A stretch of DNA of 64,000 nucleotides from Amphirosellinia nigrospora (Eukaryota > Ascomycota > Sordariomycetes > Xylariales > Xylariaceae). The notes under the pieces were generated by a model that was not told where the DNA came from, searched no databases, and saw only the letters and a program-made list of their open reading frames with translations. The stretch spans positions 9,248,193 through 9,312,192 of the forward strand of contig SCHM01000001.1 of assembly GCA_004123355.1 (NCBI GenBank), given 5' to 3'. Within the stretch, counting starts at the first letter, position 1, and each line of letters starts with the position of its first letter. Below, in pieces: positions 4,469-62,158 of the stretch. The position numbers and the translations under genes were made by a program.

Positions 4469-5773
4469 CTATTGAACTTGGTAAAGCTGACTGACAGCTC
4501 CAAGGCCATCTTTGGAGTACAAAGCCAGGAAGTGGTTACCGTCTCGAGTGAATAGACCTGGCCAATGTGAAGCAACATTGCCCGTCACTACGCTGCCACC
4601 CCATGAACGTCCACCATCTGTGCTGGTAACAACTTTCATCTGGGCGCCGTCGGCACCGTGGGCTCCGGTACTCTCGTCCGTCATGAATGAAGCCACAAGA
4701 GTGCCACCAACGTTAATAATCTGTGGCGCAATTGCTTGGCCACCGTTCGAGGCTGTGTACAACCGTCCTCGCTCGCCCCAGGTATGTCCATCGTCGTGCG
4801 ATCGGACGTAGTCGATAGAAAAGCGGCCGTTATCTTCAGTATTCTCAAATACAGCCCTATGGTAGCAATCTTAGTATGCTTTGTATTTAGGTATAACACG
4901 TCGGTCTGGTAAAGGACTTACATTAGGTTGCCATTTCCGTCGACAGGGGCAACGCCAATCATTCCATCCCTGGATGTTACGCCGGAGCCGGAGACGGTCA
5001 TTGGAGTTGCGCCGAACCACTATAACATGGCGTGTCAGTAATTTTCATCACGTATCATTCAACGAGAATTGTAAATATAGACCATAATGCTGCAACCCAA
5101 GGCATACAAATAACCATCTGATACAGCCTCTGCCTCACAGGAGAAACAACTAAGGGGTAATAGTTGATATTAAGTACTCACACTCGCTCCTCCGTCGTTT
5201 GAAAACATCACGAAGCCATCTTGGTCGGGGGCACCGTCCTCGGCCGAGTAGTAGCATTGCAGAGTTCCATCGTTGGCCACGCGTAGGAAAGGCTCCATAG
5301 CCCATTGTAGCCATTAGCCGCACGCTGAGCTACTGTAGATAGGTACTGGAAGGTTACACCGTTGTCGTCAGAGTAAGCGACGGTGATCCGATAGTATGAG
5401 TAAACTCCATTGGGGCGTCGTGGTTTCGATAAGCGTAGAGAATCCGGCCACCTGGATCTGCAATGGAAAGGCATTGTCGATGTCGAAGTTATTTGAGTTT
5501 GCCGGTAGACTTCGCCCTGGTGTTGCACGAGTTGCACCGTCACGTGTGGACCTCGCCGTCCTTAAGACATGCTGGCTTCCATCCTGTGCTGCGTAGCCGG
5601 CGATGAGACTGCCGTCTCTAGCAGATGTAACGCGGATGTATACGCCGGCCATCGATGACGTTGTCACCGCTTTGTTGGATGACCTGACCTCCTAAGCGTT
5701 TGCCTAGAACGGCAGCAGCCGCGAATGGCTGGGCAGCGAAGGCGGAAACGATAGCAAAGACCGAGAATAACAT
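4469..5773 (-). CDS. Secreted GH93-like exo-arabinanase / BNR sialidase-fold glycosidase
   Basis: The start is ATG at 5773, followed by a signal peptide (MLFSVFAIVSAFAAQPFAAA). The body is a six-bladed propeller type protein with Asp-box repeats (SDDNGVTF, SNDGGASW, SHDDGHTWG, STDGGRSWG). Landmarks are NNFDIDNAFPLQIQ, ILYAYRNHDAP, EPFLRVANDGTLQCYYSAED and ENTEDNGRFSIDYVRSHDDG. The two candidate catalytic Glu residues (in WEPFL and VFENTE) lie about 74 residues apart by my count, close to the spacing I recall for GH93 exo-1,5-alpha-L-arabinanases, so that family is preferred over true sialidases. Introns lie at 5020-5181 and 4857-4921. The first exon changes frame at least four times, three of them at short G/C runs (near 5294, 5412 and 5451), which fits sequencing error or a recent pseudogene. 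Predicted role: trimming arabinan from plant pectin outside the cell. Confidence 0.7.
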
Positions 5774-7014
5774 CTTGACGATGATGATTCAACAAGACAG
5801 GAATCCTTGGATGAGTATATTGCTAACGTCGGTCTTGACAGAGAGGCATAACTGCAGCCTTTATATAACCAACTCAACACTGACCAACAGTTTACCTACG
5901 CTAAAGTCCAATGTCGTGCCACGGCGATGCAGACGTCGTCGCACCGCGTGACCTCATACTTCTCGTCACCAAGCATGATCTAGGAGATAAGATACCGATT
6001 CGAGAAGGTCAAGTTGTTCCTAACAATACATGATACGTCGAGAGGGTCAGATACGAAGGTCACCGGATAACCCATTAGAGCATGTCCCGGTACCAGTTCA
6101 TACAAGTTGGGCAGCGGAACTTAGATTCTTGGCGTAAGAGATGCATCCAATCAAAATAGTGTCGAATGCTACATCCAGTAAGAGACAGTTGACCAATACC
6201 CACACACACACATGATGCCATAGCCATCCTAAACTCGACTACCTATTTTAACCATCAACACTACAACTTAGTAGGATTTAAAATATGTATACGCGCATGT
6301 ATACGTACAGATATAGATAGATGGAGAGACAAGAAATGTGAGCTATAGATGGGACCAAGCCCGAATCTTCTAGCTTACCATCTTGTTTTAAGACTTGAAT
6401 TGGCTGTTCCATTTAGCTTTAAAGCACCTTGGTAGAAAGGAGGGATCATAGGTAGTAGATGTGGTTTTTTTGGACAGGAGCCTTGATATTGGATGTAGCA
6501 AGCCACGTGCGAAATGGATGTATACCCGATTCCTGGTGCGAGGCGATCTCTAAAGGGATAGCACTGCGTCAAAGCTACACCTAGTCAAATCGTGCATTTC
6601 CATCGCCAAGCCTGACTTAACCTTGTTGCGAAATTGAGGCAATTCCTTGCGCGGCCAAGTTCTGGCACTAGAAGTTTCTAGACCCCAAAATGGACTCCTG
6701 CATACAGTACCTGCCTCCATATCACTGCCGACCCGCAGCCTGCACGACAAGCTTAATTCTTCACATGACCCTTATAACCCTTAGCTCACGAAGGTGAAGC
6801 AAGATAATTGATTAACTTGTTGACGGAGGCTATACCACGTCCCAAGCTAATATTACAAGCAAGGAGATTTCAAATTATGTAGCACCCTGAAAGTCCAGAC
6901 CGATATCCCCAGACGGGTTCTTGTCGATCGTGTTAGTTATGGTCTAATGTTCAGTTTAGGAAGCTAGCAGTACTAGTATACCTCTATAGTCGGTACTAAT
7001 AGCCGTGAAGCCGG

Positions 7015-7145
7015 ACTGTCAACTGCCAGGAACAACAATGGTTAGATAGACAGCCTCAACATCAGACTGGAAAGTGCCGCCAAAAACGGATATGCGGCCC
7101 TGAAATCGTACTGGTAAGTGCCGGATCAACAACGGTTAGATAGGG
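7015..7145 (+). repeat. Imperfect direct repeat pair
   Basis: Two copies of a unit of about 30 bases, built on TGCC-GG--CAACAA-GGTTAGATAG, lie about 90 bases apart (around 7023-7052 and 7113-7142). A weaker third partial match (AAGTGCCG) lies between them. This could be a decayed minisatellite or subterminal repeats of a DNA transposon. No element ends were found. Confidence 0.4.
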
Positions 7146-10100
7146 TTTTGTGACAGCTAACGCACGCTAACTCTCTCTTAATTTAGCTAGCCTTCCTCTA
7201 GCTTATATCTTATCATTTCTAGATACCATACAGTAAGCCAACATGCGTCTCTGTGACATACATTTCTCCTGTTTTGATGATTTGCCATGGTGCCGGACGC
7301 GGCCTTATAAAGAACCAAACACTATCTATAAAGCCTTAGCAAACTTTTGCGGACAGAAGAAGCAACGGAAGATACCGAATTTCCCAAATTAGTAGGTGTG
7401 TCTTAAGAGGGGGCGGCTAGACCTTAGTTAGGCACACAGATGAGGTCGCTCACACGCTTGTGCGGCTAAGCACGATCCTTTAAGTAAACGCATGGGGAAA
7501 TTCAAGATCGGAGGTGGCGGGATGACTATGAATTCAACCAACTTGGAGGATTACTTATGTAGCGAAGTGGTTGAAGATGGACGTATTCCAACCCCTGCCA
7601 TCTCTAATCTATAGAAATCTCTTATCTTCTAAAGTAAACTTTCCATATATGAAAACGTCACCCCTTACTCTACCACAAATCCTAGATGTTATTTGCACTG
7701 CTTCGATGTGTTTTAAAAATGTAGCCAGAAGCGCATAGAATACCTTTAGGAACTCACAAACAACCTCGACCTTCTACCTCATATATAATCCCTGCAATTC
7801 TCGACACAACCATGTTTCTAAGTAATAGAGCTACTTTTACTAGCAACGTTACAACTTTCCGTTCGAAGTATACTCTGAGTTTCAGATGCATCGGGTTCGG
7901 ATTAGAGATCCGTTGTCCGACATAGATGCCTTAACCTACGCCACAGACTAATGCATAAGACCACGGAGGGTAGGTCCTTCGGCCGAAATATTCATTTGCG
8001 CCGTACTCGCAGTCTCCCAGCTGTGTGTGTCACCGAGCTCACTAAATATGCGGTTCCGTCTAGGGCCGACGTCCGGACCCATTCGGAGCTCTGGTGTAAT
8101 TACAGCCACTATACACTATATGTGATTCTACAGAAGTGATTTTGCTCACTCTCCTTTCTACAAACAACGCTGAGACAAAAAGATCTATTACACGGATCAC
8201 TACAGGTAATAGGAAAAGGTATTTTTCCCCCTGCGAGCAGAAGACCATGTAGCTTATTTTTACCACCATCAAATACATACCATGAGCTCACAAATCTTGT
8301 CTCAGTTCCTCAGATCATTGAAATGGGAAAGTAGAGCACGACAACTCACACGCAGGCCACAAGAGATGTGGTGTATTTCAAACGCACATGGCTCCCCGCT
8401 CGTAAGCTTCACTGGAACTCGGCTTGTGCTTGAAAAGTAGCGTTCGTACGTAAGATCCAGATACTTCGACGCTCGCATTGAATAGAGTGGTGGTGTCACG
8501 TAATAGAACCGCAGGCCTGTACCACAATACTATCAAAAGGTAGAACGTTGTCAAGTTGGAGAATTGGTCGTTTGTAGTTGGTTATACTTGATGAATGCGT
8601 TCACAAGAAGCTTGATGATTTAATTTTAAGAGCTTTCTGTATAAATCGGTGGCGATTATACTTTGTTGAGTTGCCGGATGACCAAGTAATTTAAGTAGCT
8701 TTCTTTATCTCAAGCTCTAGGACGACATTACTTACGCTCAGAATCACACTACTTGACGCAAAATCGCATGCAAGGAACGGAGTTCGAAACGGCTTCGTAT
8801 TGGTAGTACAAGAGTCAATTTTTAAGCGAATCTGTCTCTCAAAACGACTAGCCTTCCTAACAGCCCCCAACCTCCGTATCCTTCTCTTTTTAGAGACAAT
8901 AGAACGACCAAGGAGCGCATACTCGCGAACGAGATGACAAGTGCAGATGAAAAGAAAGAACCCAGTATTGTATGTAGCATACAAATATGTACATATATAC
9001 GCGAATAAGACCACGGGTTACTAACCATCTTGAGATAGACTTTAACATCTATCAACTGACTAATGAAGCGATAACTACCCAAACGTAACTCAATCTTGCC
9101 GTCAAAAGACATATACATTATCGTGTACCCAGGCGAGGCCTATAATGAGCGATTTAAGGTTGTCTGTTGGGCGCCTTGTTTTCCTTCAGCCGAGTTAGCC
9201 GCCGAGGAGAATTATGTCTTTACCTATTAGGAGATATGCTGCGAATGTCGATCTCATGCGAGATGCCCTCATTTTCGACTCCTTATATGAGGTCATGGGT
9301 AGTATAGTGTCATCCTACCCAGCCGAGCGGAAACCCAATTTCTGTTACATAAGTCCTGGGGGTGGGTGCGGGGCATACCGTAAATTCGGGAACACGTGTA
9401 GTCCCACGTGAGACTGCCGGCGGCCAGGGCCTCAACGCTGACATATTGCCGGTGGCCTTCAATAGTAGCATTCTATATCGGCAAGCCTTACGGAGATTGT
9501 AAATACGCTTCGCATGCATCTACGTCTAATCTCATTTCGGGTAGGAACTTCCAATATGAGGATCGTGCGGTAGACTTAGCTTATTTCAAAAACTAATCAA
9601 TTTGGGTAATTTAACTGAGACGAAGTAGCTAGCTATCACTCGACATCTTTGTCGTCCAGGATTTCATAACGAAAGTATGGCAACAGTAGCCTTATGCGTG
9701 CTTATTCCTCTCGTGATACTTTTGTTTGGACCTAATGTGCCCACGTGGAGTGCAGACCTCCAACCTTGGCATTTGCAATGTGCTGTCAATCTCACTCACT
9801 ATTTACCACCGTCTTACCAACTACCCGGGATCCCGCATCTCAATTAACTTGAAACCGAAAAAAAAAACGCTGATTTTCCAGAAGTTCAAGGCGATATCTG
9901 CCTACATAGTGTTATTATAACAGCTTACAGCATAAAGTCATTCAGCGCCATGAAGATTTCGCTAAGACCATCTATGGGCATCGAAACAATATGAGACCCA
10001 AGCAAAAGCCCGAGTATCTTTCAGGATTCTATGCCATGGCATAAAAGTCCCTACATATGACAAGGGAGGTCACCGGGACGAAAAGGTAGCCAGAGTTTCT

Positions 10101-10904: not shown

Positions 10905-11035
10905 CGTCATTGCCTCGCAAGTAAGGGTATAAGGTTGACGTTGATATCTGGAGTTGCACGGAGAGTCTAGGAGTCTTCGAGGACTAGTCCCTAACTATAT
11001 GTACACAGGTTTTTATCTCCAGGTTTCTATAGCTT
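10905..11035 (+). repeat. Possible decayed relative of the solo-LTR family
   Basis: A stretch containing CCTCGCAAG, then a GGGTATAAGG block, then GTTGCACGGAGAG follows the order of the first 60 bases of the nearby LTR copies, with many differences. Ends and target duplication could not be seen. Old fragment, weakly supported. Confidence 0.25.
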
Positions 11036-11182
11036 AGAAAGTGAAGCAAATTGGGGTTCAGGTGAAGTATCGTAAAATTAAGTTGTGCCTTGTGACACAG
11101 CCTGTAGGTATAGTCGTGAGTCTCGTTACCTCTAATTTCTTCTTACATATTTCCAAGTGGTGAGCCAACACCTTTACCGGAC

Positions 11183-19606: not shown

Positions 19607-21108
<1,502 letters not shown>

Positions 21109-27567: not shown

Positions 27568-30386
27568 TCAATGATCAAATTCGCCTTCCCCAGAATACCT
27601 GTCAGGCAATTCTACTTCGAAAAGTGGCCGTTCCACAAGAGCGACTTCCAGTGCCTTTGGTCTGGCAGCGTGCAATGTGACCTGCATATTATTTCCATTT
27701 TGCTCCTCTGTCTCATCACCTAAAGGTACGATACCTAGAATCGGCCGATATTTAAACGTGTACCAGAACGCAGGACCCTGCCTTGGTTGAGACTCCTGAT
27801 CAGACTTGCCCTGGAGACCCCGAAGAATTGCTAATTCACCTAGGACTTCGTCGTCTGACTCGTCGCTTTCGCTGTCTCCCGCGTGACTCGCCTCATCCTC
27901 ATCCATCGGATCGAAGACGGGCCCGTCAATTGGAAGTTCTTCTATTTCTTCTCCCTGGATGTGGCGGAGCACCTTGGTTGGGCCTGCAGCCCCAGTTGTC
28001 ATCTTATTGCCGGCGCCGCTGTCAGGGCCTCGTTTTCGTTTTCTTCCTTGCACCGCTAATTCGCTCCCTGTTACCGGGCTGGCGGCAGTGGGTTCCGCTA
28101 AATCTTGTGTTGTATCGATCATGAAGAGATACGTATTTCCGTACAGCCACACCTTGTCGCCAGACCAGAGTGCCCCTTTAACGAGATCCCGAATGTCTCG
28201 GAATTCCGGAGGGAATCTAGAGATAGGGTTACGCCTAGACCATGAGGTGAGAGATCCGAAAGTGGGGTGTATCAGGATAATCTGGGGTTTAGAGGTAACT
28301 GCTAGCAAGGTATAGTCTTCTATCCCGTCTTTCTCTGCTGTTGTGGTTGTGGGGGGGATATGGTTAGAGAATGACAGAACCGTGGGGGCAGCGTGTAGTT
28401 TTGGTATCAGTGAGGTATTGGGATTTCGCCTCCATCGAATACCGCTTGTCTCTGTATCATCTTCATTTTCACTGTCTGAGCTATCATCTGAAGCTTCGTT
28501 CTCATTAGTATGAGATGCGCCGTTTTCCTTGTCCTGTAACTTGTGGGGCTCTTGACCAAGAACCCAAGTGTCAATGTAACCAGCTAGATCCGCAACGGCT
28601 AACATCCGGCTGTCTGGAGAGAAAGCTGCTTGTGTGATTGTCCTATCGTACTGTCTAAGGCCGCCCATAGTATGGTGTTTAGGTGTCTGACGTCGAAGGC
28701 GTTGTAACCGAACGGACTTCGGATGAACTGTGAGCTTCTCTGACGAATCGGAAGGCTGTTGGACACGCAAGAGTGACACGGTGTTCCCAATCTGCACCAA
28801 ACACACCCACTGACCATCCGGAGATATCAGGACTCGCGTAGCGCCGAGGGCTGCGATTGCTCCCTCCAACTCCACTTTCGATATCTTGAGTTCATCCCAC
28901 CGAGCGCCATCGCGAGGTTTTAAATGAAATGCTTTGATGTCGGACGTGGTAGAAACTACAAGCAAAGACCCATCGGCACTAATGGATGCCGCCGTGGATA
29001 TTTGCTTCGCCTTTTATCAAGACACGGGCCAGAAGCTTCCGGTTCTTGGCTACATCGTGGTCGTCATTCGACTTATTCGCTAGTTCTGCTAATGAATTTG
29101 GAAGTCGCCAAATGGATACTTCGCGATCCCACCAACTAATGATTAGTCGGCTCTTGTATGCGCTCTGTAGAGGAGGATCTTGAGGTAGCGAGGATAAAGC
29201 TCGATGGTTCTCCAGGCCGGCCTTTTCGAGGGCATCACAATAGGAGTGGCGTCGGGGCCTGAATGCTAGTTAGTGACATGCCCGTTAATGCTAAAAGGAA
29301 AGTTACGCACCTCCTGAAACTACGATACTCATACCATGGCCTTCAAACGAGGCCATCGTTTTAACATCGTGATGGTGAAGTCTCCTGTGAAATATCTTGG
29401 CCCATCTTGACCCAGACCCTGCGGTTTTTCTGTACACGGCAGTTCGACGGTCCATACCTCCAGTCACAATGGTTGAACCATCAGCGTTTGTGACGAGAGA
29501 GAGAACATCGGAGCTATGTGCTTTGAGCCTCTGAGCTTGTGTGTAAGTACTTCCATCCCATATGCGAAGTTCTCCGGTTGAATCACCAGAGACTATATCT
29601 CCTCCATCGAGGCACTTCACACACCAGGTAATTATTTCCTTGGCACCGCCAGCAAGATCCGATCCCAATGTCATCTTAGCGAGTGGTGTACCGTTTCGCA
29701 TGTCATACACGAGAATACAGCTTTGGGAAGTGCCGACCACAACGGTATTGCGATCTTTGAATGCAATGCTCACCATCTTGGTCTTTTTGGAAGAAGCCCT
29801 TGCAAGAACACGATCGTAACGGAGTTCACCGTCATCAATGTCATACAGAACTAAGCTCCCATCCATAGTGCCAGCGACAAGCTTCTTACCGGTGTAATAG
29901 GTCTTGGTTTTAGACTTGTCGCCGCCCTTTGCTGGCGCCACAAATGGTTGGACTCCGAGACACCATATATCGCCATGAGTGCCACTTGATTGATGTTTTG
30001 GGCGGCCTTTCTCGAGATCCCACTCGTGATGGTGCTTGAGTAGCCGAAGCTAAACAGCCTCAGACAGCCGGGGATCTTTTTACCATCTTGAAGCGTTTGT
30101 TCAGGCTCTGTCACCCAGACCAGTCCATCTGTTTTGGTATTAGTCGGGCATGGACGTTTCAGCAGGAACCGGATGACTTGCCGACAGTACGGTCTTTCCC
30201 TCCACGTATTATCGTTTCTTGGTGCCATGACCCGCCGAGGGGACTCCAGATCTCAATGTCGCCGGAAGCACGGCCAATAGCTAAGCGGATAGGCGTAGAC
30301 TTCTTGGAAGCGACAGACTGGGAGAAGGCGACGCAGTTGATAGGCGCTGGGTTGTAAGGTACATATCTGATGCGATGAATATCCAT
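27568..30386 (-). CDS. UTP4: U3 snoRNA-associated protein 4 (WD40, small-subunit processome)
   Basis: A subunit of t-UTP/UTP-A, which binds nascent pre-rRNA in the nucleolus and starts 40S assembly. It begins MDIHRIRYVPYNPAPINCV, as in Utp4/cirhin, and carries WD40 blades through to a conserved tail (ALEVALVERPLFEVELPDRYSGEGEF). An acidic insert with DDSSDSENEDD and DEDEASHAGDSESDESDDE patches and a KRKR basic site lies in the C-terminal half. Introns: 30129-30181, a GC-AG intron (donor GCAAGT, branch-like GACTAAT, acceptor CAG), and 29259-29310 (GTGCGT...CAG). Both restore the frame exactly. The frame slips once near 30025, 29223-29226 and 29001-29003, each at a homopolymer one base short, so the gene spans several open frames. 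Expected length is about 900 residues, normal for fungi. Confidence 0.92.
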
Positions 30387-33488: not shown

Positions 33489-35041
33489 ATGCATAACGCC
33501 TTGAAATCTGCCCTCGCGGTGCTAGCCGCGAGCTCTGGTCTATTCGGCACTGGAGCGGAAGCTAAACTAGTCTTCGCCCATTACTTGGTAATTGCTTGCC
33601 GTCCAAATCGTCCACTTCTTGTGAATCCCCGCTAATCGACATCCAGGTCGGAGGTATCGATCCCAACTCCAACCATGCCCAGCAAGACATCCAGCAAGCG
33701 GTCGCGGCGGGCTTCGATGCCTTCGCGCTCAACGTCGGCGCGCCCGGCGCAGACTGGCTTCAGAGCGCAGTGAAGCAGCTCTTCGACTATGCCGACTCAA
33801 GGGCGACTTCAAGCTATTCTTCAGCTTCGACTTCTACCAAAACGGCGACATCAACCAGCACCAGACGCTATACCAGCAGTACGCAGGTCGCTCGTCCTAC
33901 TTGCACTACGGTAACAACAACCAGCCAGTCGTGTCTTCCTATAGCGGCGGTAGTCTTGGCCCGGACACCTGGAGGAACTTCAAGACGACGAATAACGTCT
34001 ACCTTATCCCAACCCCGAATCGGATGGCAATTACTATAACAATCCTACAGCGTTCTTCCAGAACTGGGGTAATTCTATCGACGGCGTGCTCAGCTGGGAG
34101 ACGAGCTGGCCCGATGTGTCAGACTCGCCTGCAGGCAACGTGTCATCGTCGCGCGACACGGCGGTCAAAAACGCTGCCTCCGCTGCAGGCAAGAGCTATG
34201 TTATGGGTATGTGAAAGCCAGCGTTGCTCTTGATGCTATTCTGAACATATGTGATTGATATGTCTTAGGTTTGTCTGCACTTCAATACAAGCATTGCTGC
34301 GGCGACTCGTGGTACCGCGACGGCGAGACAACTCTGCTGGAGCGCATGGATCAGATCCTGAAACTACAGCCAGAGTTCACTGAGGTGATCACCTGGGTAA
34401 GCAAACCACCATCATCATTCATCGCCCCCTCCCTCTTCACGAATTCCATCTACCCAGTCCAAGACCCAATCTGTGGTCTAACCCGCTGCTAGAACGATGC
34501 CGGAGAAAGCCATAACGTCGGCCCCTCTTGGCCCGAAACCGTGACGCCGGAAATCCTCCAATACGGAGATACCGACCAGATCCCTCACTCGGCTTGGCAG
34601 CCACTGATCACGTCCTTCATCAAAGCCTACAAGGACGGCGCGTCGGACACGAGCGCAATGGTCCCCGCCAATGGAGCATCTTTCGCTGGTGCCATGTGGT
34701 ACCACACCGTTACGAAGTCATGTCTCAACAATGGTGGCGACGGCACGCCTCGTGGAAATGGCGGTGCCCGCGACACCTTCGTCTATGCCGTCATTCTTCC
34801 TTCTGGCAGCTCGGGTTACCAGGTTCGCATCACTAGTGGAGGGCAAGTCCTCGCGACCCAGTCCGTGCCGGGCGGGTTGAGTTACAACTCGATTGAGGGT
34901 CTGAGGACGGGCTCGCAGCTGCTCGAACTGCTTAACGGGAACGGCCAGGTCGTTGCAAAGGCTGTCAGCAGCAAGGATGTTACGGACCAGCCCTCGAACA
35001 ACTTCTGCAACTTCAATTATTATGTTGCTGGTTTGCAATAG
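33489..35041 (+). CDS. GH71 alpha-1,3-glucanase (mutanase)
   Basis: Secreted enzyme cleaving alpha-1,3-glucan of fungal cell walls. A signal peptide (MHNALKSALAVLAASSGLFG) is followed directly by the GH71 start block AKLVFAHYLVGGIDPNSNHA. Further blocks are DIQQAVAAGFDAFALN, KLFFSFD, GVLSWETSWP, GLSALQYKHCCGDSWYRDG and ITWNDAGESHNVGP. Introns at 33588-33646, 34207-34268 and 34397-34492 all have GT-AG ends and restore the frame. Total is about 445 residues, the size of a single catalytic domain plus a beta-rich C-terminus; no carbohydrate-binding module is visible. The frame slips at 33799-33803 and 34011-34012, each one base short in an A/G or A run, probably sequence errors. Likely roles are wall remodelling or attack on other fungi. 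Confidence 0.9.
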
Positions 35042-40812: not shown

Positions 40813-42094
40813 ATGCCTGAAGTCGATCCCCTAATATTTTCATACTCCCATCTCGCGGACTTCCCACGTGCTGCTGATGCATTGCATACACTCAAGAAAG
40901 TAGCTTCGTTGGTGAAGCCGCTCATGCGCGCACGGGGGTGGAAGGTTGGCCAACTTACCGAGTTCTACCCTGGCCAGCAAAATCTGCTAGGTAGGACGCC
41001 TATATGAGCCTCGAAGAAGTAAAGACGTCTAAATAAGTATTGGCAGGACTCAATGTAGATCGCGGAAAGAGGATCTGTCTACGGCTCCGGTATCCCGGGG
41101 ACCGGAACCAGTTTCTCCCTCTTGAGCAGATCGCCGACACCATGCTGCACGAGCTTGCTCACAACGTCCACGGCCCTCACGACGCTAAATTTCATGCACT
41201 GTGGAATCAACTTCGGGACGAGCATTTGTCACTGACCTTGAAGGGTTACACTGGGAGGGCTTCTTGTCCGAGGGTCACCGGCTTGGCGGTGGAACCATGC
41301 CGATGGACGAAGCTCGAAGGTTAGCTCGAATAGCCGCTGAGAGGCGACGCACTTTAGGTGCCGGGTCGGGACAGCGACTTGGTGGCGCCGCCCCTCGACC
41401 TGGACAAGATATCCGAAAGGTTATCGGCGACACGGTTGAGCAACGCAATCGGACGCTACGGGGCTGCGCCAACGACAACCAAACGCGAGACGAAATTGTC
41501 GAGATTGCGGATACGGCGACGAGGAACGGTTTCAGGACCAAGGCCGAAGAAGACGCCGCAAATGATGCCGCGATTGCGCAGGCGCTATGGGAGATCGTAC
41601 AGGAAGAAGAAATGACGAAGAAAGGGAATACTTACGTGCCACCCGGCGGTACCAGCAGCACTAGTAGGGATAATCTCGATTCGAAAGGAAGGGGCCAGAG
41701 TTTGAGAGTTGCATCACAGCCATCGACATCTCGGCGCGGCCCCCAAAGAGATAAGGGAGCTAGTAATAATACATGGACATGCCGTGTATGCACTCTGAAC
41801 AACCCAGGAAATTATCTATGCTGTGACGCATGCGGCACAGAAAAGGGCGAGACATCGGCACCAAAACAGCGAGCGGTAATCGATCTGACCGGACCAGATA
41901 GGCGCGGCATGAACAACGGGGCACAATCTACCTCCGTACCATCATCATCTAAGACGAAGGAGTCAAAGCAAGGTCCTTCTCAGTCTAAGTCTTCTACATC
42001 GCCGACTTGGACGTGCCACTTCTGCGGCAGGGTACGCGAAAGCCAATGGTGGTCCTGTGACATGTGCGGTACTGTTAAGCTTTCGTCTAACTAG
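40813..42094 (+). CDS. WSS1: WSS1-like SUMO-directed DNA-dependent metalloprotease
   Basis: Predicted repair protease that digests DNA-protein crosslinks in the nucleus (WLM family, relative of SPRTN). The WLM domain ends in the zinc-protease site HELAHNVHGPHDAKF: two His and the catalytic Glu, with the third His in GPHD. Later features are a SUMO-interacting motif (AVIDLTGPD) and two RanBP2-type zinc fingers (WTCRVCTLNNPGNYLCCDAC and WTCHFCGRVRESQWWSCDMC). Yeast Wss1 carries SUMO-binding and Cdc48-binding motifs but, as far as I recall, no pair of RanBP2 fingers. The start is ATG 40813 (MPEVDPLIF). One intron at 40991-41046. The frame slips at GGG 41253-41255 where the family sequence expects one more G (GYTGEGFLSEGHRLGG). 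Length is about 405 residues. Confidence 0.9.
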
Positions 42095-46339: not shown

Positions 46340-48096
46340 ATGACACAAGTTAGAGATCCCTCCGACGATCTCGAGAGGCGTCTCGAGCAACTCGGAAAAC
46401 AGGTCGACAATCTTGTACTAGCGCTTGACGAGTGGCGACAATGGAAACAAGAATATGAGGCCTTGCAAACAGAGGTGCATGCGCTATCGCCGACAGCCAC
46501 ACGCGCAGCTCTTATCGAGACGCGACAGGCCTTTAAGGGCGAGTTAGTGGATGAGAAAGAACTCGTCGAGATATTCGGCCGGAATGATTCCAGAAAACGC
46601 GATCAGATCATCAGCACTGTCACTAACCGACTAGATTACGTGTCAAGGAATATAACGACCCTCAGTAAACAACTCGAAGCAGCCGAGAACAAACTTGCGG
46701 CTACGCGAGTTGTGAGCTTTCCCGAAGCCGCCGACGATGACGGTTTACCCATCACCGAGATAAGTGAAGAGCTAGACGATGACGGTAATGTCATCTCGTA
46801 CAGCCTACGTCGACCAGGGACAGCCAACCCCAACTTATGGAGGCGCTAGAGAAGGCTGGTATCAAGGAACTACCCTCCGCTTCCCATGAATCGGCACCTG
46901 CAACAACGTCCGATACACCGAAACACACTTCTGATTCACCATCCGCTAATCCCACCGAAATAAAACAACTACAATCAAAAGAAGGAAAAGTAGCCGGCGT
47001 TTCTAAAACTAAACAAGCGTCAAAAAGGAAAAGTGTCACGTTCACAGAAGACACGAAACAGGCCGATGAAAAGAAGCCGCTTCATATGACCCAAAGACTG
47101 GAAGAGTTGTATCGTCAGGCGAAGGACCAAGAACAGGTCATATCAGACCCTGTCATGCCAGCAGACGAATCACCAGAGGATGCTGAGTTGCGCGAGGACA
47201 TGATACGGTACAATAAAGAAACGATGATGTACGAGATGGCGCCTATCGTCGCTGAGTTGCAACTCGAAGAAGGGTCGGCCGACGACGATGACTGGGATTA
47301 CGATAGCGAAGAGGACGATGACGATGAAGATCAATGGGGAAAGTCAACGTCTGGAGTTGTAGATGATGAATACAGACGCCAGCTGAGAGCGCCTCAGCAG
47401 CAGACGTTTGGCGAACAGAAAACGTCCGGCGACGACGAAGATGAGGAACTTTCCGAAGGCATAGGTCGCATCACAGTCAAGAGTGAGAATCTTGACTCGG
47501 CCCAGGACGCCTTAGAGTCTCCTACGGCCAGCGGAGTCGCCGCTGACTCTATATCAAAAGATGAAGCGAAGAAGAGTGTCAAATTTGCTCCTAGTCTCGA
47601 CATTGCTGAGTCGTCACCATCAACTGCTCAGCTAGGGTCTGAGCAACGCCACCAACCCGACGTTGATCCATTATCCGATGTGGTTGAGCGCAGCTCCTCA
47701 CGGGCAACCAAAATAGTTTCAACATCTGGACGAAAACCGTCTAAGTTCCGGATGGAGCGAGCGAATGGTGGGCCGGCGCCGCAAACACTACCAATCGCAC
47801 CAGAAAAGCCTACCGATAACACGAGATATGCGCCCTCGGGCCCGGAGGGCAAGACTCTGGCGTCCGATATCCTAGAACACGAGCCATCCGGCGATGTCAA
47901 AGAACCAGACGAGCTGGACGCCAACCTCTTGCACCAGCAAGTGACAGAGGAGTACTATAAGATGCGTAACCGGATGATCGGGCAGAACGGCGGGTTTCTT
48001 AAGGAGAATACGGATCCCATTCAGCCGCTGGAAGAGGAGGAAGGTGGCCCTAAGCGAGTCAGTCGCTTCAAGGCCGCAAGGTTGGCCAAATCGTAG
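46340..48096 (+). CDS. URI/Bud27-like unconventional prefoldin
   Basis: Predicted co-chaperone that binds RPB5 and helps assemble RNA polymerases; its yeast relative Bud27 also affects translation and TOR signalling. The N-terminal 120 residues are a prefoldin-type helical hairpin (DDLERRLEQLGKQVDNLV, DYVSRNITTLSKQLEAAENK). Long acidic and disordered parts follow (DDDDWDYDSEEDDDDEDQWG), with two KSV-F-type repeats (KRKSVTFTEDTK and KKSVKFAPSLD). The conserved DUF3835 end is YYKMRNRMIGQNGGFL and EEEEGGPKRVSRFKAARL. There is no intron. Two overlapping frames belong together: the slip is at CCCC 46828-46831, one C short. Length is about 585 residues. Confidence 0.85.
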
Positions 48097-48920: not shown

Positions 48921-49687
48921 CTAGTTCATCTTGACGTTGCTAAAGTCCATGTCGGGGTTCTGGGCGGCGAATTTCTTGGATGTCGCCTTGCGCTGGTCCT
49001 CCGAGCTGGGGAGCCCCATCTCCTTCTGGCGCTGGTCGTACATCATCTTCTCGACCATGCCGCGTGTCTCACGTCCAGGTCGGACAACTTGGATTTCTCG
49101 GGCTGGATCTTGGTCACGTCGATTTTGGCGCCGTCGTCACTACGTGCGCCCACCACTCCATCTTGTTCGCCTTGTCCAGGTGGATCTCGATCGTCTTGGT
49201 CCGTCCGGCGCGCTCGTCAGCGTCCAGGTCGACTCCTCGGTGTGGATGGCGTGCGGAGTCGCCCTGTTTTATTCAGGATGTGTATTTAGATGGAGCTTAT
49301 TCATATTCATGACGCTGCAGTATCTCTGGCTACATACCTCGATGATAGGCTCCTGCCCTGATCCCCGCCTTGATCTTCTGCTTCTTGAGCTCGACGACTA
49401 GATCCCGGCCCTTTAGGTTTCCCGGGATGGAAGTTATGAGGATTTCGAGCTCGGCAATGGTCTGGGTCCATTTGTACGGTAAAGCAGCTTGCTCGGCCGC
49501 TTCTTTCGCACGGGCCGCTGCCTCTTGCTCGGGTGTGGGATCTGGGCATCACGACATATTAGCTTCATGGTGGGGTTATAGCTCATCAAGCATGAGGTGG
49601 GGGTATTGTTGTTGCTGATAAAGAGTAATTTAGGCAAATATAAAGTGAACCTGGTATGTGATGAGTAATATTACCTTTGTCTACCAT
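48921..49687 (-). CDS. nudC: Nuclear distribution protein C (CS domain)
   Basis: Co-chaperone with a CS (p23-like) domain, needed for dynein-dependent nuclear movement. It begins MVDK, then an intron (49542-49674), then [18 protein letters not shown], the CS start [15 protein letters not shown], and [17 protein letters not shown]. After a second intron (49264-49337) come [72 protein letters not shown] and the exact family tail [12 protein letters not shown]. Length is about 190 residues, as expected. The frame slips at least five times in this short gene, at GG/CC runs near 49072, 49127 and 49201 and at two less clear points (near 49347 and in the start of exon 3). NudC is highly conserved and usually essential, so sequence error is the better reading. 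Confidence 0.85.
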
Positions 49688-50169: not shown

Positions 50170-51308
50170 ATGTCTCGAAAGCCTATCACCAACGGCTCGA
50201 CCGTCGTGAGGCTCCCCACGGGCCCGACAACCGCGCTCCCGTCCGATATCTGCCCCGTATGCAAGCGTGTGCGCTACCTCAACACCGACATGGAGTTTCT
50301 GATCAACCCGGAGTGCTACCACCCCATGTGCAGCAACTGCGTGACCAACATCTTCAAGTCGGGGCCGCGCAGTGCCCCTACGCTACTTGCATCAAGACAT
50401 TACGGCACCGAGGCTTCCGGTCCGCCTTCTTTGGCGACCTGGCCGTGGAACGCGAGGTTGACATCCGCCGCCGGGTGGCCGCTGCCTACAATATGGTCGA
50501 GGACGACTTCGAGACCCTGCGCGACTACAACAACTATCTACAGAATGTCGAAGACCTGACATTCGACCTGATCTCTGGTGCCGACGATGACCGACGCGCT
50601 GCCGAGCAGAAGCTGCTAAATCGTGAGCAGGAGTTCCGCGACGAGATCGAGCGAAACAAGCGTCGTGGCCGCGAGGCCGAGCTCTCCCGCCAGAAGCGCG
50701 ACGCAGCGGAAGCCGAGGCCGCCCGGCAACGCCGACTGGAGGAGCAGCGGGAGGATGCCCGCGCCCGTGCCGAGGAGGCTAGTATCAACGCCGAAGTCAT
50801 GGAGGCCCTAGCACGCGGAGAGCAGGGGTCAGCCGCCGAGATCCAAGCGCGCATCGTAGCGCAGAACCGGGCGCGCGTTGCGGCCATCTCTGGTGCGCAC
50901 TTCACAAGTCTTCTAGACTCTGGAGCGCCCAGCGGGAACAGCAACACGCTGTCGATCCGCGGGCTCAAGACCAAGAAGATCTCGGAGGAAGAGGAGGACC
51001 TCAGCAAACCATACGATCCCTTCGCGGGACTCGGACCAGCCCTGCAACCCTCGCGCTACGAGCTCCGCGAGCCGTATCCGAACCCCTGGCTTGATGCCGC
51101 TCGCACCAATGATGACCATCGCGTCCCTGGATATAGCATTTCCGAGTACGTCACGCGCGCCATGTTCGATGCGTTTGCTGGTCTGGGCGTCAATATCGCC
51201 GATGAGCGGAAGGATTCTGCACGCGGCCCTGGCACGTTGGTGGCGGCTGAGGCGGCCGCTGCCAATCGTACATCGGGACGTGTGAATGTTGACGATGTAT
51301 TTGGATGA
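50170..51308 (+). CDS. TFB3: TFIIH/CAK assembly factor (MAT1 homologue)
   Basis: RING-finger subunit that joins the CDK-activating kinase to core TFIIH in transcription and repair. The RING reads CPVCKRVRYLNTDMEFLINP, CYHPMCSNCVTNIFKSGP and CPYATC, with the following LRHRGFR; GDLAVEREVDIRRRVAAAYN is the conserved helix after it. A long charged coiled coil (about residues 135-245) and the CAK-binding C-terminus (YDPFAGLG, PNPWLDAAR, YSISEYVTRAMFDAFAGLGVNI) follow. There is no intron. The frame slips inside the RING at 50361-50366 (one C short in GGGGCC), so the two overlapping frames are one gene of about 378 residues. Confidence 0.9.
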
Positions 51309-52433: not shown

Positions 52434-54581
52434 CTACTGCTGTTGCTGCCACGGCGTTTGTTGTGTTGGCCTGGGGAAGATGGGTTGTGTTGGCAGCTGG
52501 TCCAGGCCGCCACCGATAGGCATCTGGTTATGCTGCCATCCCATCCCGTTTGGTGGTTGACGAAGGCGCCCTGTCGGAACGGGTTGGTAGCCCCGGTGGC
52601 TTGTGGTGCGATACCCCACTCGTCTGCGGCTGTTGCTGCTGTGTTTGGGCGCCCGCAGGTGGAAAGTTTTTGGCGAACGGGTTAGTACCGGTCGGCGCAG
52701 GCTGTAGCGCTGCTGGTGACTGAGTGGGCGGTGGCGACTGGAAGGGCGAATTAGATTGGGGCTGGCAAATGGCGGCGCAGCTTGTGGCGATGATCTGGCA
52801 AAAGGATTTGTAGGTTGACGGGTGAGAGCACTCGGCGGCTGGATCTGAGGGCTCGTTGGCGTGGGAAATGTGTTTGGACCGGCCCCATTAGCAGGCATAC
52901 CGGTCTGGTTGGCCATCATCATCGATGCCCTGAATGGGTTTGTCGTCTGTTGGCCTGTTTGCATGGGGGGCGAGAGAGTCCCTGTAGGGAAAGTTGCAAC
53001 AGCATCTTGTGGTATTGAGCCTAGGCCATTAGGATTAAAGCTTAGCTGTGGCGTATAACCACCAAAGCCGCCAGCGCCTGTAAAGTTAGGCTGCATTTGG
53101 ATGGGCATTTGAATGGGCATTTGGGGGCCATTTGTTGTGGAACTGGAAACCCAGTAGATTTGGTTGTTGGAATGAGTTATTATTCGGATACCCTGTGGCC
53201 TGGGGTACGAAACCATTGCTTTGAAGTTGGGCAGGTTGTTGCATTCCGATGGCCAGGGTTACCAGTATTCATCAACGGCATTTGGACTTGTTGCTGAGGT
53301 GGCTGAGGATTGGGCTGGGTGCTCATCGTGGTCTGATTCTGCTCTATCGAATCGAAGAAATCGATGAGATCGGGGTCGGGACCCTTGGTGGCCTGAGGTT
53401 GCTTCGGAGCGGATGTAGACGATACATTCGGTGCAGAGAAAAGCCTGACGGCTTCTGCTTTGGCCTCTGACATGCCCGTACTCTTTTCTCCTTTCGAAAG
53501 ACCACCCTTCTTTTTTGCTTGCTGCTCAGCAATATACTGCCTCCTATTTATCTCAAAATCGGGATCGTTAAGATAATCTTCGAGCTGCCGCCGTAGATTG
53601 ACCGGGGCGTGTTTCAACTTAGGAACCTCGACCCTCGTATGAGGTTCCCATTGTCGCGCCACAGTCAGATACTGTACAACGGCATCTGTAGTTTTAGTGA
53701 AGTGACGGTAGATGTCCATAGCCCGCTCCGCATCCACCTTTGACATCTCGAAGAAGTGTCCTGGGAATTATCAGTCTCGATATAAGAAAGGGGCACGACA
53801 GCTGTCAGGCTTACCTAGCATATTAATCATGCCTTGGTTGAGTACCTGGAATAAGCTTAGGAGATCAAGAACCAGAAGCCTAAATACGGTAATAGTAATC
53901 TCGTTTTCAGGTTCGTCCAAGACCTTTCTGCAGATTAGTCATTTCGTCGTGTCAAAAACCTGCGCCGTATGCACATACATCACATTTCAGTAAAGCACTT
54001 AGTTGACGCTGAACTGATTCGGTTTCGCGCAGGAGCCCTTTTCGACCGAGAGACTCTCAAGCCGTGTCTCCTTCGCACGCACCCAGTCTATCTTAGTATC
54101 TTTGTAAGCGCGTACTCGCTCAGCCAGGTAGGAGGCATAGTGCCGTATATTCCGACCCTGTATCTGCGCTACAGTAGAAAAACATCAGCCCAAGATGTTT
54201 CGTGGTTAAAGGAGGACGGACGGACCATCGGTGAAGGAGCTAATGGCCAACTGGTTACGGTTTCTAGCCAGGTACGATAATGTGGCATCGGGTGAGCCCT
54301 CTCGGATCATCAAGTGCACTGTGATCAAACTCTTGAAGACGACGGTCCATGTCGAGTCTCGAAGCCGGTTTTGCAATGCGCGAAAAACTTCACCAACACC
54401 AGCTTCGCCCGCGTGCGTAGCTACCAGGATGTGCTCGATATACTTCGTCTTCGGGGGGGCAGCCTACAGTAGCCAGTTCGGTCAGTGCTGATAACGGATC
54501 TAACGGGATTGCAATATCACCATTCCGACTTGCCTTGATCTTGGTTGCGCCCTTAACGGACTTCTCAAAGGAGCTCGACAT
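52434..54581 (-). CDS. AP180/CALM-type clathrin adaptor with ANTH domain
   Basis: Endocytic adaptor that binds PI(4,5)P2 through its ANTH domain and clathrin/EH proteins through its tail, like yeast Yap1801/1802. It starts MSSSFEKSVKGATKIK; a GC-AG intron (54464-54533, donor GCAAGT) then joins to AAPPKTKYIEHILVATHAG, VVFKSLITVHLMIREGSPD and, after an intron at 54169-54225, GRNIRHYASYLAERV. Further introns lie near 53917-53967 and 53762-53817. The ANTH end includes MLGHFFEMSKVDAERAMDIY and YLNDPDFEINRRQYI. The C-terminus is Gln/Pro-rich with NPF motifs for EH-domain proteins (TTNPFRAS, PTNPFARS and a third NPFAKNF near 52670). Frame slips occur in the Pro/Gln-rich tail (near 53225 and in 52600-52790) and possibly at the intron near 53960. 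Confidence 0.85.
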
Positions 54582-57464: not shown

Positions 57465-57809
57465 TTAAACGGCGAAGTGCTCCGGGTCTTCCCTCAGCGT
57501 GGCCAGCGTCCACTCGAGCGGGATATGTAACCCGTCGTCACTACTATTCCGTACGTAGATTCTGCCGTCGTAAAACGTCAGGAATCCCTTGCTGGGTGCC
57601 TTGAGCGTCACCGTTGATTGGCTGCCGCATAGCTTGTCCGCTTCTAGCATCGATAGCAAGTGCTCCGGTGGGAGCTGAGGCTTTTCATCGTGATCTTGAA
57701 AGATTCTGTCGACGAAATCGAGTGGGTGGCCTAGTGCTTTTGGCTCCGGCTTACTGCCAAGAAGGGGGGAGGGGGAGGCGAGTGAGGCTAACAAAACTTG
57801 AGTTTTCAT
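57465..57809 (-). CDS. Small hypothetical protein, possibly secreted
   Basis: 114 residues. The first 20 (MKTQVLLASLASPSPLLGSK) could be a weak signal peptide; the rest is mixed alpha/beta in composition (LDFVDRIFQDHDEKPQ, GFLTFYDGRIYVRNSSDDG, LEWTLATLREDPEHF). There is one Cys, so it is not a classic Cys-rich effector. Codon use and composition look coding. The tail pattern (FLTFYDGRIYVRN...PLEWTLATLREDP) could belong to a family I do not recognise. It lies in an accessory stretch next to the NLR remnant. Confidence 0.5.
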   Translation of the reverse strand: MKTQVLLASLASPSPLLGSKPEPKALGHPLDFVDRIFQDHDEKPQLPPEHLLSMLEADKLCGSQSTVTLKAPSKGFLTFYDGRIYVRNSSDDGLHIPLEWTLATLREDPEHFAV

Positions 57810-59872
57810 CTTAGAACGAGTGAATCACTGAACTTAAGGTTGAGTCCAGCCGATTAAAGTTGAGGCATCTAAGGAAAGAAACGTGACTTTTATATCTCCC
57901 ATACACCAGTCGATGTGATAGTCTAGCTCCCTCGTCTCATCCACGCTACTAGGGCATGACAATTCCTCACTCTCGAAAAGAAGAGTGTTCCTCTCCGATG
58001 CATTTCCTATAACTTCAAATAGTTAGGCTAACGTACTCTGATGTGTATATTTTCGCAACCATGGCAATACTGGCATGCCGTAGCAGACTACTAACATGGA
58101 AATTCAGCATATTGACTCGTCAATGGCTAACATTTGATAAAACACCATTGATGATCAGCAGCGAGAAACGCCAGCCGCAAGTTGCGATACCTACCCACGT
58201 CGTCCTGTACCCACCCAGGCCTCGAGACGGGTTACTGCAGCACAACCATATTCTAGGCTGTTACCAAATTAGCAAACTACGCTACTATCTTTCTCCCATA
58301 CGTGCCAGTTTATGCTGTCATCTTGCCGGATATGGACGCATCGCAGACTCCACTTGCTTAGGTAGTTTGGCGCATTAGTGGAGATACCAAACTTCTGAGC
58401 TTGGACTACCGAACAAACGATGACGCGCATCTTACCTTTGCAGTTGTAACTACCTATTTAGTACGGTAGAATTTAAGGAGACAGCATTCACATATAATGT
58501 TATTAGTAGGAATTCATAGGTAATCAAGAAATCAGAAAGACACCAATTTGCGCAGCGCCAAAGACATGCACGCCTAAACAACTAGATACATTTACAAGAC
58601 TCATCTAAAGTGAGTCTCTAACGGATAGCTATAGATACTAGTACAATAGTCATACTATACCAACAATTAGTGAGAAGAGCATTGTTGCCTCTATCTACCC
58701 AACCTAAGATATACTTCATCCGGCGAGAGGCAAGCTGATGTGCCACACTTGAGGCTTTAGCTAGTTGCCAAGATGGTGATCATATCATGTGCCGATACCT
58801 TGGATGAGAATTAGCGACCGTCGCATACCACCACCAAATGTCGATCGTCTATCCCCATAGCTGATATTGGATATCGTCGTCACATCTTCCAGTGTTCAAA
58901 TGTTTTTCAGAGTTGCCTTCTCGCGTCCGATGATAAACAAGGTCCGGGTGTGTCGAACGCTTATATCATGATTCCGGCCCTCTCGTTACAGCAGAACCAC
59001 TTGAGCCTCCGAAGAGGAGAGTTCTACAGCTCCGAGAAGCGGAACACATCATACTATACACGCAGCTTTCATCATCTGCGAGATAGAGCAAGGTTAGTAA
59101 CCAATCCATTGAATTGAATAGGAAGCGGTCGGGCGGGCGGGTGTCGTTCGGGACTCACATTTATTTGAATTGGAAGGATGAAGAAGAAAGGAAAGAAAAA
59201 ATCCGAAGCCCCACCAACCAGAAGCAAAGATATACGGAGGTCTGTGCCAAAATTGACGATCATCCTTGGCAATGGTGTAAAGTGCAAATAGGGGAGCTTA
59301 TATACGGTGTGACGGCTTGGCAAGCAGTGTTTCGGGCCGGCAGTAGTCTATAAAGTCATAGACCACTAACTACGCTATACCGTTAGTACAGATGGGGCAT
59401 ATCAATCGCTAGCTAGAGCGGAGTTCAGGGCTTAGCCTAGTAGGGTAGATACCTAGCCAGCTGTCTGTTGAGACTGTCGGGCTGTAAGCGGCCCGATGAA
59501 CTGGTTGCCAAGCCGTTACACCGTATATAAGCTCCCCTATTTGCACTTTACACCATTGCCAAGGATGATCGTCAATTTTGGCACAGACCTCCGTACAAGG
59601 CATAGCTAACTAGTCTAGCAGGATAAGATAAGCGCAGCTGTGGGGCAGGTGGCTGACGGGGCGTCGACATGGACAATCGGATGTTCAACAATGATGGACT
59701 TCAATGATGGACTTTTGCATCAAACACAAACAGCGAACTTGAACACGCGGGGGTTGGGTTCTGGAACCAAAAGAAACCAAAACACACTTCACAATGTGTT
59801 TAAATTCATAGATAATCGAAATGATAAGAGCACCCATAAACCCTCTTCTGAGGGCCGCCTCGAGATCGTCAG
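57810..59872. other. Intergenic with a hairpin element
   Basis: About 2 kb without a supportable gene. The notable content is the inverted-repeat element at 59235-59593. The last 280 bases are the probable MSD1 promoter and leader. Confidence 0.5.
59235..59593. mobile_element. MITE-like hairpin element, TA-flanked
   Basis: Two 105-bp arms in inverted orientation (59235-59339 and 59489-59593). The outer 76 bases are identical and the remaining 29 differ at only about five positions. The arms start CGGAGGTCTGTGCC and each is preceded by TA (59233-59234 and 59594-59595), which fits a Tc1/mariner-type target duplication. The 149-base centre encodes nothing. Two mirrored open frames in the arms are by-products. 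It is best read as a non-autonomous DNA transposon (MITE or foldback). The near-identical arms imply a recent origin or ongoing correction. Confidence 0.75.
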
Positions 59873-62158
59873 ATGCAGCCACGCGTCACTCCGGACACTC
59901 CAACCTCAATCTCATACCTTCACCTCAAGACTAAACCCAAACCCAAAACCACCACTAGAACCGGCACCGAAACCGGAACCGGAAGATCAGGCGCCAGAGT
60001 ATACGGCGACGTCCCTATTCAAGAGCAACGACCCCTTCGATGCTTTCAAGGATTCACGTAAGCTGCAGAGCACCCGTTTCCTCTAGCATAACGAAACTGA
60101 AGAATCCTATCCATCTAGTCAAAATTTCTGATTTCAAGCCCCAATATACCTTTTTGGTAGGCCAGCACGTCGTTTTCTATGGCTTCATTGGGAAACGGCG
60201 AGACCAGGGCGCAAATCTGAGCTTTTGCCATTTCAAAACCTCTCATTACGATCCTGACCTTCAAATCGTGTCTAGTTGGAGGAGGAAAACTCGCGGGCAC
60301 ATACGGCCCACCTCAGCCTGAAGTCGGTACCGGCATACAGCCCCGTCCACGGTATTATAAGGCACACGTAAAGCCGTTACTACGATGCCTCATTTGAGGC
60401 GTAGTGAAAATGACGAACCTGACGCCGCATACGACATACGGTTGACGGCCATCCAGTGTCTAAACGCATTCCCCAAGGACATCGTTGTCTCCAAAGATGC
60501 TGTATGGCCACTCAAATCACGCCATCTGCAGATGAGATTCGATCCTTTTCTAATCGAGCGATTGAGGCTCCGCAGCGAAGTAGCCGCGGTCCTCAGGCAA
60601 GAACTGTCCAACGCTCGGCATTTCATCGAAGTGGAAACCCCGATACTATTCAAGTCGACCCCGGAAGGTGCTCGAGAGTTCTTGGTGCCAACCCGACGGA
60701 AAGGCCTTGCATACGCACTACCACAGAGTCCGCAGCAATACAAGCAGATTCTCATGGCTGGTGGCGTTAGAAGGTATTTTCAATTCGCCAAATGCTTCCG
60801 AGACGAAGACCATCGCGCTGACCGACAACCCGAATTCACCCAGGTTGGTGTTTCTTGCCTGTCTATCTCCCCGTATTATACTTACTAAGTAGGAGTAGCT
60901 CGATATCGAAATGGCTTTCGCCAATGGACGAGATGTAAGGACGATAGTTTGCTGTTTGCGCTCCGTCAGTCACTTTTTATACGATCAAGTTCTGCAGAAT
61001 AAATTCAACGCCATTAGATCCGTGGGCTGGGGACTTCCAATCCTCGAGAAAAACCCTGCGAAAATAAGCTACCGCCAGGCTATGGTTCAGTTTGGTACCG
61101 ATAAACCAGATCTCCGGATGAAAGCTCCACATGTATCAACTGTAAGTCTATTGTCTCCAACGTGTTAAGAAGGCCTGAGTTAACGAAGAGAAGATACTCC
61201 ATGTAAAGGGGCATATCTCTCCGTTTTTCAAGACCACGATCTCCAACATTCAAAACCCCATTGTAGAGGCCTGCAAATTTCGGTTTGAGTGCCCGCCTGA
61301 AGAGTCCGCCAAATTTATCAAGGAATTTTTCGATACGCTTCCGAATACCCCCACAAATCATCTGATCGTAACAGCACGCCAGGCGTCTTAATCTTTGATG
61401 AAACAAAGCCACTCCAAGGCTTATTACCCCTTGGCCAGCAAGCAGCAGGCAGTCTCGCTACATTCAACAACAGGAATTGGGCTCGATGTGTGCATGGCGA
61501 TGTGATGATTTTCTATGCACGGGAAGACAAGCAAATCACAGGAGCCGTGACGGAACTTGGCAGACTCCGAAAGTTGATATATGACGCCGCCGTAGATAGG
61601 GGTTTATTACCCCAAGATGATTCATTCAACTTCATCTGGGTGACGGACTTCCCATTATTCTCTCCGAACGAAGACGATCCAGGACAAGGCGGTTCGGCAG
61701 GTTTCTCCGCTACACACCACCCTTTTACCTCGCCTCTTTCGCCAGAGGATCTCGACCTTTGCAAAACGGACCCTCTCCGGGCTCTAAGCGACACGTACGA
61801 CCTCGTGCTCAACGGCGTTGAGATTGGCGGCGGAAGCCGACGTATCCACGTTGCCGAGGTGCAGGAGTACATCATGCGCGACGTCCTGAAGATGACCGAC
61901 GAGGGCGTCGGCCAGTTCTCTCATCTACTCGAGGCGCTCAGGGCCGGATGTCCGCCCCACGCCGGATTCGCGTTCGGCTTCGATCGGTTCATGTCTATCA
62001 TCTGTGGCGTCCCTTCCGTGAGGGACGTCATCGCGTTCCCTAAGAATAACAAAGGAGCGGATCAGCTCGTGGGCAGCCCGTCCAAGATCACAGAGGCTCA
62101 GAAGAAGACCTATCATCTCTTCACCGAGCCCGAGTCGGACACCGCCGCCCCTGCGTGA
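59873..62158 (+). CDS. MSD1: Mitochondrial aspartyl-tRNA synthetase (class II)
   Basis: Charges mitochondrial tRNA-Asp. The true start is unsure: ATG 59873 is the best placed, and the basic, Ser/Thr/Leu-rich sequence after it ([19 protein letters not shown] in an adjoining frame) resembles a mitochondrial presequence. The anticodon-binding OB fold follows ([36 protein letters not shown]). The class II core has motif 1 ([20 protein letters not shown]), motif 2 ([20 protein letters not shown]), [12 protein letters not shown] and motif 3 ([12 protein letters not shown]). Introns: 60844-60898, and one starting at 61142 (GTAAGT). Frame slips occur near 60060, 60280-60460, and at 61372 before [13 protein letters not shown]; the last exon (61373-62158) is clean. 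Length is about 690 residues, usual for fungi. Confidence 0.88.

What the first reader, a model, noticed from the sequence alone, without database searches (positions are those of the whole stretch)
5290..61372. Repeated one-base losses at homopolymers across essential genes point to consensus error
In nine or more genes the frame jumps by exactly one base, and at most points the family sequence is restored if a short run were one base longer: PNG1 (19626, 19967), UTP4 (30025, 29223, 29001), GH71 (33799, 34011), WSS1 (41253), URI (46828), TFB3 (50365), NudC (49072, 49127, 49201) and GH93 (5294, 5412, 5451). All shifts go the same way (a missing base). Loss of TFB3, UTP4, NudC and URI together is not plausible in a living fungus, while PL4, PEX13 and the O-methyltransferase are clean. 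The pattern matches an unpolished long-read assembly. It matters because automatic annotation would split or call these genes broken.
Basis: partly seen in the sequence, partly recalled or inferred. Interest (0 to 1): 0.75.

Follow-up and report, generated by a model that had tools for sequence, protein, structure and literature searches.

The report
One-base assembly errors, not broken genes
Several housekeeping genes of this fungus look broken because the assembled sequence has lost single bases, about one per thousand in the part sampled, and 5S ribosomal RNA genes elsewhere in the genome show the same losses, so this is most likely a sequencing artefact and not biology.

Summary
At 5 of the 16 listed points homology on both sides leaves no room for an intron (UTP4 twice, TFB3, WSS1, GH71). 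By codon phase 15 of 16 points go one way (a missing base); UTP4 near 29001 goes the other way (one extra base or two missing). The MAT1 domain of TFB3 and the UTP4 locus each gave one match in the 48.1 Mb assembly. Two tests outside the window decide it. Among 19 5S rRNA genes of the commonest type there are 14 gap events and no insertion; all 11 one-base gaps lie in runs of three or more, which make up 22 of 120 bases. A coding-frame model finds 30 missing-base and 9 extra-base switches in 78.4 kb of coding sequence, much like synthetic genes with one deletion per kb (35 and 8), and the window is no worse than the other C1 stretches. Corrections: some frame changes are ordinary introns, and two of the three genes called clean (PL4, the O-methyltransferase) also appear to switch frame. 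No reads or platform data were available.

The parts
27568..30386 (-). UTP4 (SSU processome subunit): frame switches near 30025 (-1), 29223 (-1) and 29001 (+1 or -2), plus a predicted intron near 29310-29265
   Evidence: Four pieces are colinear with Chaetomium Utp4 (5oql_D 74-119, 113-345, 355-431, 431-883); intron. The 3' piece and a 3-kb DNA query over the locus each match once in the genome.
50170..51308 (+). TFB3/MAT1 (TFIIH subunit): one -1 frame switch near 50365
   Evidence: RING half in one frame, MAT1 domain in the next; the pieces meet at yeast Tfb3 about 51|52. The MAT1 family matches once in the genome.
41037..42094 (+). WSS1-like gene with WLM domain: -1 frame switch near 41253
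   Evidence: WLM profile 53-123 and 116-189 in two overlapping frames (the second piece scores 25.8 bits, just under the cut-off of 26)
33489..35041 (+). GH71 glycoside hydrolase: -1 frame switches near 33799 and 34011
   Evidence: Glyco_hydro_71 profile 14-61, 59-132 and 230-374 in different pieces; the second point by phase and eye
46340..48096 (+). URI-like prefoldin: -1 frame switch near 46828
   Evidence: Prefoldin_3 and DUF3835 in two frames, both away from the switch; exact point by phase and eye
48921..49548 (-). NudC: -1 switches near 49201, 49127 and 49072; by eye a further +1/-2 switch near 49360 and an intron near 49330-49265
   Evidence: CS domain 2-41/78 in one piece, NudC 87-111 of 2cr0_A in another; the 3' piece gave no match and is read by eye
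19609..21108 (+). PNG1 peptide:N-glycanase: -1 switch near 19967, possible -1 near 19626, predicted intron near 20147-20234
   Evidence: Transglutaminase core and yeast Png1 106-322 downstream of the switches; intron; phases, the switches themselves by eye
4472..5788 (-).
   Evidence: Phases; family not confirmed

Best explanation
The frame jumps are residual consensus errors of a long-read-type assembly. In base calling and consensus building, short runs of the same base were recorded one base too short, at a rate of roughly one loss per kilobase of the coding sequence sampled. Each loss inside an exon shifts the apparent frame by -1; two close losses would give the apparent +1 cases. The living fungus most likely has intact genes. 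Shown here: the frame jumps, one match only for two of the genes, the same loss signature in 5S rRNA genes, and a similar switch density in other sampled stretches. Inferred: that the mechanism is base calling, which platform was used, and the double losses.
For: Non-coding control: 33 5S rRNA matches in the assembly, 30 of them fetched, with lengths 120 (11), 119 (12), 118 (3), 117 (2) and 116 (2). In the 19 copies of the commonest type there are 14 gap events and 0 insertions; all 11 one-base gaps fall in runs of 3 or more (22 of 120 positions). 20 pairs of copies differ only by one gap, 6 only by one substitution (pairs are not independent). Coding control: 30 missing-base against 9 extra-base switches in 78.4 kb over 45 of 51 stretches at a middle setting. 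Synthetic genes at that setting gave 2 and 3 with nothing planted, 35 and 8 with 72 planted deletions, 5 and 43 with 74 planted insertions. Window 7 and 2 in 19.5 kb; near the window 8 and 2 in 16.6 kb; rest of C1 14 and 4 in 35.8 kb; 5S flanks 1 and 1 in 6.5 kb. In the kinase table (143 rows, searched by hand) 7 frame switches leave no room for an intron, 5 of them -1 (phases recomputed). The MAT1 domain and the UTP4 locus match once. Published Nanopore drafts show deletions mainly after runs of 4 to 5 (passages of PMC12007338), and indels in conserved genes of ascomycete Nanopore assemblies at low coverage (passages of PMC9453082).
Against: No reads or transcripts could be examined. One listed point (29001), by eye two further ones in the window, and 2 of 7 kinase switches go +1 or -2, not -1. 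5 of 16 points have no run of 3 or more within 3 bases. Six of the 11 one-base 5S gaps fall on one run of five C, which could be a real length variant shared by several copies; without that run, 5 of 5 still lie in runs. The three longer 5S gaps (2, 2 and 4 bases) are not wholly in runs, and the 19 copies also differ by 54 substitutions at 15 sites, so real variation exists. With cheap introns the coding model covers four listed points by putative introns and finds no switch in the four stretches beside the window. At the loosest of six settings the ratio falls to 78 against 42 (not simulated). The simulation uses the model's own statistics, so its sensitivity is optimistic. A/T run lengths show no shortage of long runs.
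Confidence: 0.95

Rival explanations
1. The frame jumps are ordinary short introns misread as frameshifts.
For: Some frame changes in these genes are predicted introns: PNG1 near 20147, UTP4 near 29310, PEX13 near 63829. With cheap introns the coding model also covers 19967, 29001, 46828 and 49072.
Against: At UTP4 30025 and 29001, TFB3, WSS1 and GH71 33799 the homologous pieces abut or overlap, leaving no room for an intron. 5S rRNA genes have no reading frame and show one-base gaps too.
Confidence: 0.02
2. The locus is a decayed duplicate: real pseudogenes in a degenerating region.
For: AT-rich stretches lie beside the window (L005-L007, GC 0.30-0.40), as in genomes affected by repeat-induced point mutation (recalled).
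Against: The MAT1 domain and UTP4 have no other match in the assembly (the other listed genes were not searched). Switch density is like that of other C1 stretches, and 5S genes on other contigs show gaps.
Confidence: 0.01
3. The losses are real DNA of a mutator lineage without mismatch repair.
For: Many losses are one-base and run-associated, as slippage would be.
Against: In the 5S genes the runs are only 3 to 5 long and long A/T runs persist. Housekeeping genes are hit, UTP4 three times. That a living haploid fungus could carry this is judged implausible (inference).
Confidence: 0.01
4. The genome is right and the cell recodes: programmed ribosomal frameshifting restores the proteins.
For: Only that family sequence resumes in another frame at the five two-sided points.
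Against: 5S rRNA genes, which are not translated, show one-base gaps too. No shared slippery site was obvious by eye among the 16 contexts; this was not tested formally.
Confidence: 0.003

Closest known systems
Homopolymer deletion errors in Nanopore draft assemblies (Kastor study, PMC12007338; passages seen)
   Same: Deletion errors associated with homopolymers of two to eight, most after four to five, fragmenting genes by frameshift
   Different: Small bacterial genomes compared with references; here no reads, reference or platform information
Indels in filamentous ascomycete Nanopore assemblies (PMC9453082; passages seen)
   Same: Filamentous ascomycete assemblies in few contigs; indels in three conserved genes at low coverage, in and outside homopolymers, falling as depth rises
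   Different: That study names its fungi and coverage; this assembly is unnamed

Membership tests
Long-read consensus (homopolymer) error | One-base length changes with losses dominating | tested here: met
   15 of 16 listed points -1 by phase; 5S: 14 gap events (11 of one base), 0 insertions in 19 copies; 30 against 9 in coding at the middle setting
Long-read consensus (homopolymer) error | Association with runs of one base | tested here: met
   5S: 11 of 11 one-base gaps in runs of 3 or more; window points 11 of 16 against 0.34 expected, a biased choice of points
Long-read consensus (homopolymer) error | Spread over the assembly, coding or not | tested here: met
   One-base 5S gaps on C1, C4, C5, C6 and C10; kinases on C1 and C4; C1 stretches. 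C2, C3, C7, C8, C9 and C11 not shown either way.
Long-read consensus (homopolymer) error | Reads or transcripts disagree with the consensus | not testable with these tools
   No reads held
Pseudogene cluster | An intact functional copy elsewhere | tested here: not met
   One match each for the MAT1 domain and UTP4; the other six genes were not searched
Misread introns | At least about 40 bases with splice signals between the frames | tested here: not met
   Pieces abut or overlap at 5 of 16 points; predicted introns explain some other frame changes in the same genes

The most novel reading that the evidence does not exclude
The DNA is correct and nuclear transcripts, 5S rRNA included, have single bases inserted at short runs after transcription (insertional RNA editing).
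Probability: 0.003. Interest if true: 0.95.

Novelty: not a real feature. Interest (0 to 1): 0.08.

Why it matters
Annotation or pseudogene counts made on this assembly would wrongly split or discard essential genes. Any other finding in the window that rests on an exact frame, stop codon or run length should be read with an error of roughly one base per kilobase in mind. Comparing dispersed 5S genes is a cheap way to spot such assemblies without reads.

Tried and rejected
Coding-frame Viterbi with cheap introns explained four listed points as introns; it was not trusted alone. Six settings were run on the real data and three of them on synthetic genes. A kinase table and an MFS table (only 9 of 415 candidates scored) were tried as genome-wide controls; only the kinase one was usable, searched by hand. 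A tRNA family search (63 of 1644 candidates scored) listed well-scoring genes and says nothing on broken ones. Run lengths: A/T runs look normal; G/C runs of 5 to 7 become rarer, but five runs of 13 or more exist, so this was left as inconclusive. PDB searches with one piece called GH93 and one NudC piece found nothing. An 18S rRNA comparison failed twice (no usable answer) and was given up.

Rows left out: six of 51 stretches with GC at or below 0.44 (L005, L006, L007, L013, L021, L029) were excluded. In one search, 19 of the 30 fetched 5S copies (of 33 found) were used; the other 11 are divergent types whose gaps were not counted.

Full report
What was claimed. The window lies on contig C1 (9,248,193-9,312,192) of an unnamed 48.1 Mb genome in 11 contigs.

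Are the jumps there? Yes. Translating the frames shows family sequence passing from one frame to another. By codon phase, 15 of the 16 listed points are -1 changes (a base short); UTP4 near 29001 is +1, which could be one extra base or two missing ones. Homology fixes five points on both sides. The UTP4 pieces match Chaetomium Utp4 74-119 and 113-345, and then 355-431 and 431-883, so the jumps near 30025 and 29001 have no space for an intron. The TFB3 RING half and MAT1 half sit in two frames and meet at yeast Tfb3 residue 51 or 52. The WSS1 WLM domain is split with overlapping pieces, and the GH71 domain likewise at 33799. The remaining 11 points rest on one-sided homology or on reading by eye. 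The pieces called GH93 gave no firm family match.

Corrections to the observation. Not every frame change is an error: predicted introns account for one each in PNG1 (near 20147), UTP4 (near 29310) and PEX13 (60 bases near 63829), and by eye one in NudC (near 49330-49265). The 'clean' genes are not all clean: PL4 domain III stops at profile 136 of 160 in its frame and the O-methyltransferase domain at 77 of 105, and by eye both go on in another frame. A class II tRNA-synthetase gene at 59.6-62.2 kb and an ANTH-domain gene at 52.4-53.8 kb also look broken. Association with runs is real but not complete: 11 of 16 points have a run of 3 or more within 3 bases against 0.34 of coding positions, and 7 of 16 against 0.08 for runs of 4 or more; these points were chosen with runs in mind.

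Is it the locus or the assembly? The MAT1 domain and the 3' piece of UTP4 each match once in the genome, and the UTP4 locus has no DNA duplicate found, so a spare copy of these two is not the answer; the other six genes were not searched. Two tests outside the window point to the assembly. First, 5S rRNA genes: 33 matches, 30 fetched, lengths 116 to 120. In 19 copies of the commonest type there are 14 gap events and no insertion. All 11 one-base gaps lie in runs of 3 or more, which cover 22 of 120 positions; the three longer gaps do not lie wholly in runs. Twenty pairs of copies differ by one gap alone, against six by one substitution alone; over all 19 copies there are 54 substitutions at 15 sites. 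Six of the 11 one-base gaps fall on one run of five C, which could in part be a real variant; the other five are also all in runs. These genes are not translated, so reading frames, introns and ribosomal frameshifting do not bear on them.

Second, a coding-frame Viterbi model on 45 of 51 stretches (311 kb) at a middle setting missing-base and 9 extra-base switches in 78.4 kb coding. Synthetic genes gave 2 and 3 in 72.4 kb without planted errors, 35 and 8 with 72 planted deletions, and 5 and 43 with 74 planted insertions. At the strictest setting the real data gave 9 and 1 in 79.1 kb, the synthetic genes 0 and 0 without errors and 8 and 1 with deletions. At the loose setting that was also simulated the real data gave 42 and 19 in 78.8 kb, the synthetic genes 6 and 9 without errors and 42 and 14 with deletions. 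At the loosest, not simulated, the real ratio was 78 to 42. Scaling the first two settings, the genome looks like one deletion per about 1.0-1.3 kb of coding sequence with few insertions, and the window (7 and 2 in 19.5 kb) is like the rest of C1 (14 and 4 in 35.8 kb) and the stretches beside it (8 and 2 in 16.6 kb); the 5S flanks gave 1 and 1 in 6.5 kb. The model was trained on the same genome, so the true rate may be higher. In the kinase search (143 rows, searched by hand, phases recomputed) seven switches leave no room for an intron, five of them -1, on C1 and C4.

Explanation. The simplest cause is shortening of short runs in base calling and consensus, known from Nanopore drafts: deletions mainly after runs of four to five (PMC12007338, passages), and homopolymer and other indels in conserved genes of ascomycete assemblies at low coverage (PMC9453082, passages). 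Platform and polishing state cannot be seen here. Close pairs of losses would explain the +1 cases; this is inferred.

Verdict. The finding is an artefact: useful as a warning for every other frame-based reading of this window, of little biological interest.

Noticed in passing
L005-L007 (three 10-kb stretches within C1:9312193-9362192) and L013 (C1:5500001-5510000): AT-rich stretches (GC 0.25-0.40) beside the window and elsewhere on C1, against 0.46-0.50 in the other 16 stretches.
   Followed up: no
59619-62158 (+): Class II tRNA synthetase of the D/K/N group (tRNA-synt_2 profile 6-119 and 185-307 in two frames) that looks broken; introns were not excluded.
   Followed up: partly
52434-53767 (-): ANTH-domain gene whose frame appears to switch.
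   Followed up: partly
L021-L050: Dispersed 5S rRNA genes fall into at least two sequence types; in the commonest type changes at positions 17/19 and 58/60 occur in equal numbers (six copies each), as if paired in a helix.
   Followed up: no
window 57218; L001 4781; L010 1498; L016 7016; L032 1273: Five very long G or C runs (21, 16, 19, 13 and 58 bases) although G or C runs of 8 to 12 are absent from the 358 kb held; possibly artefacts too.
   Followed up: no
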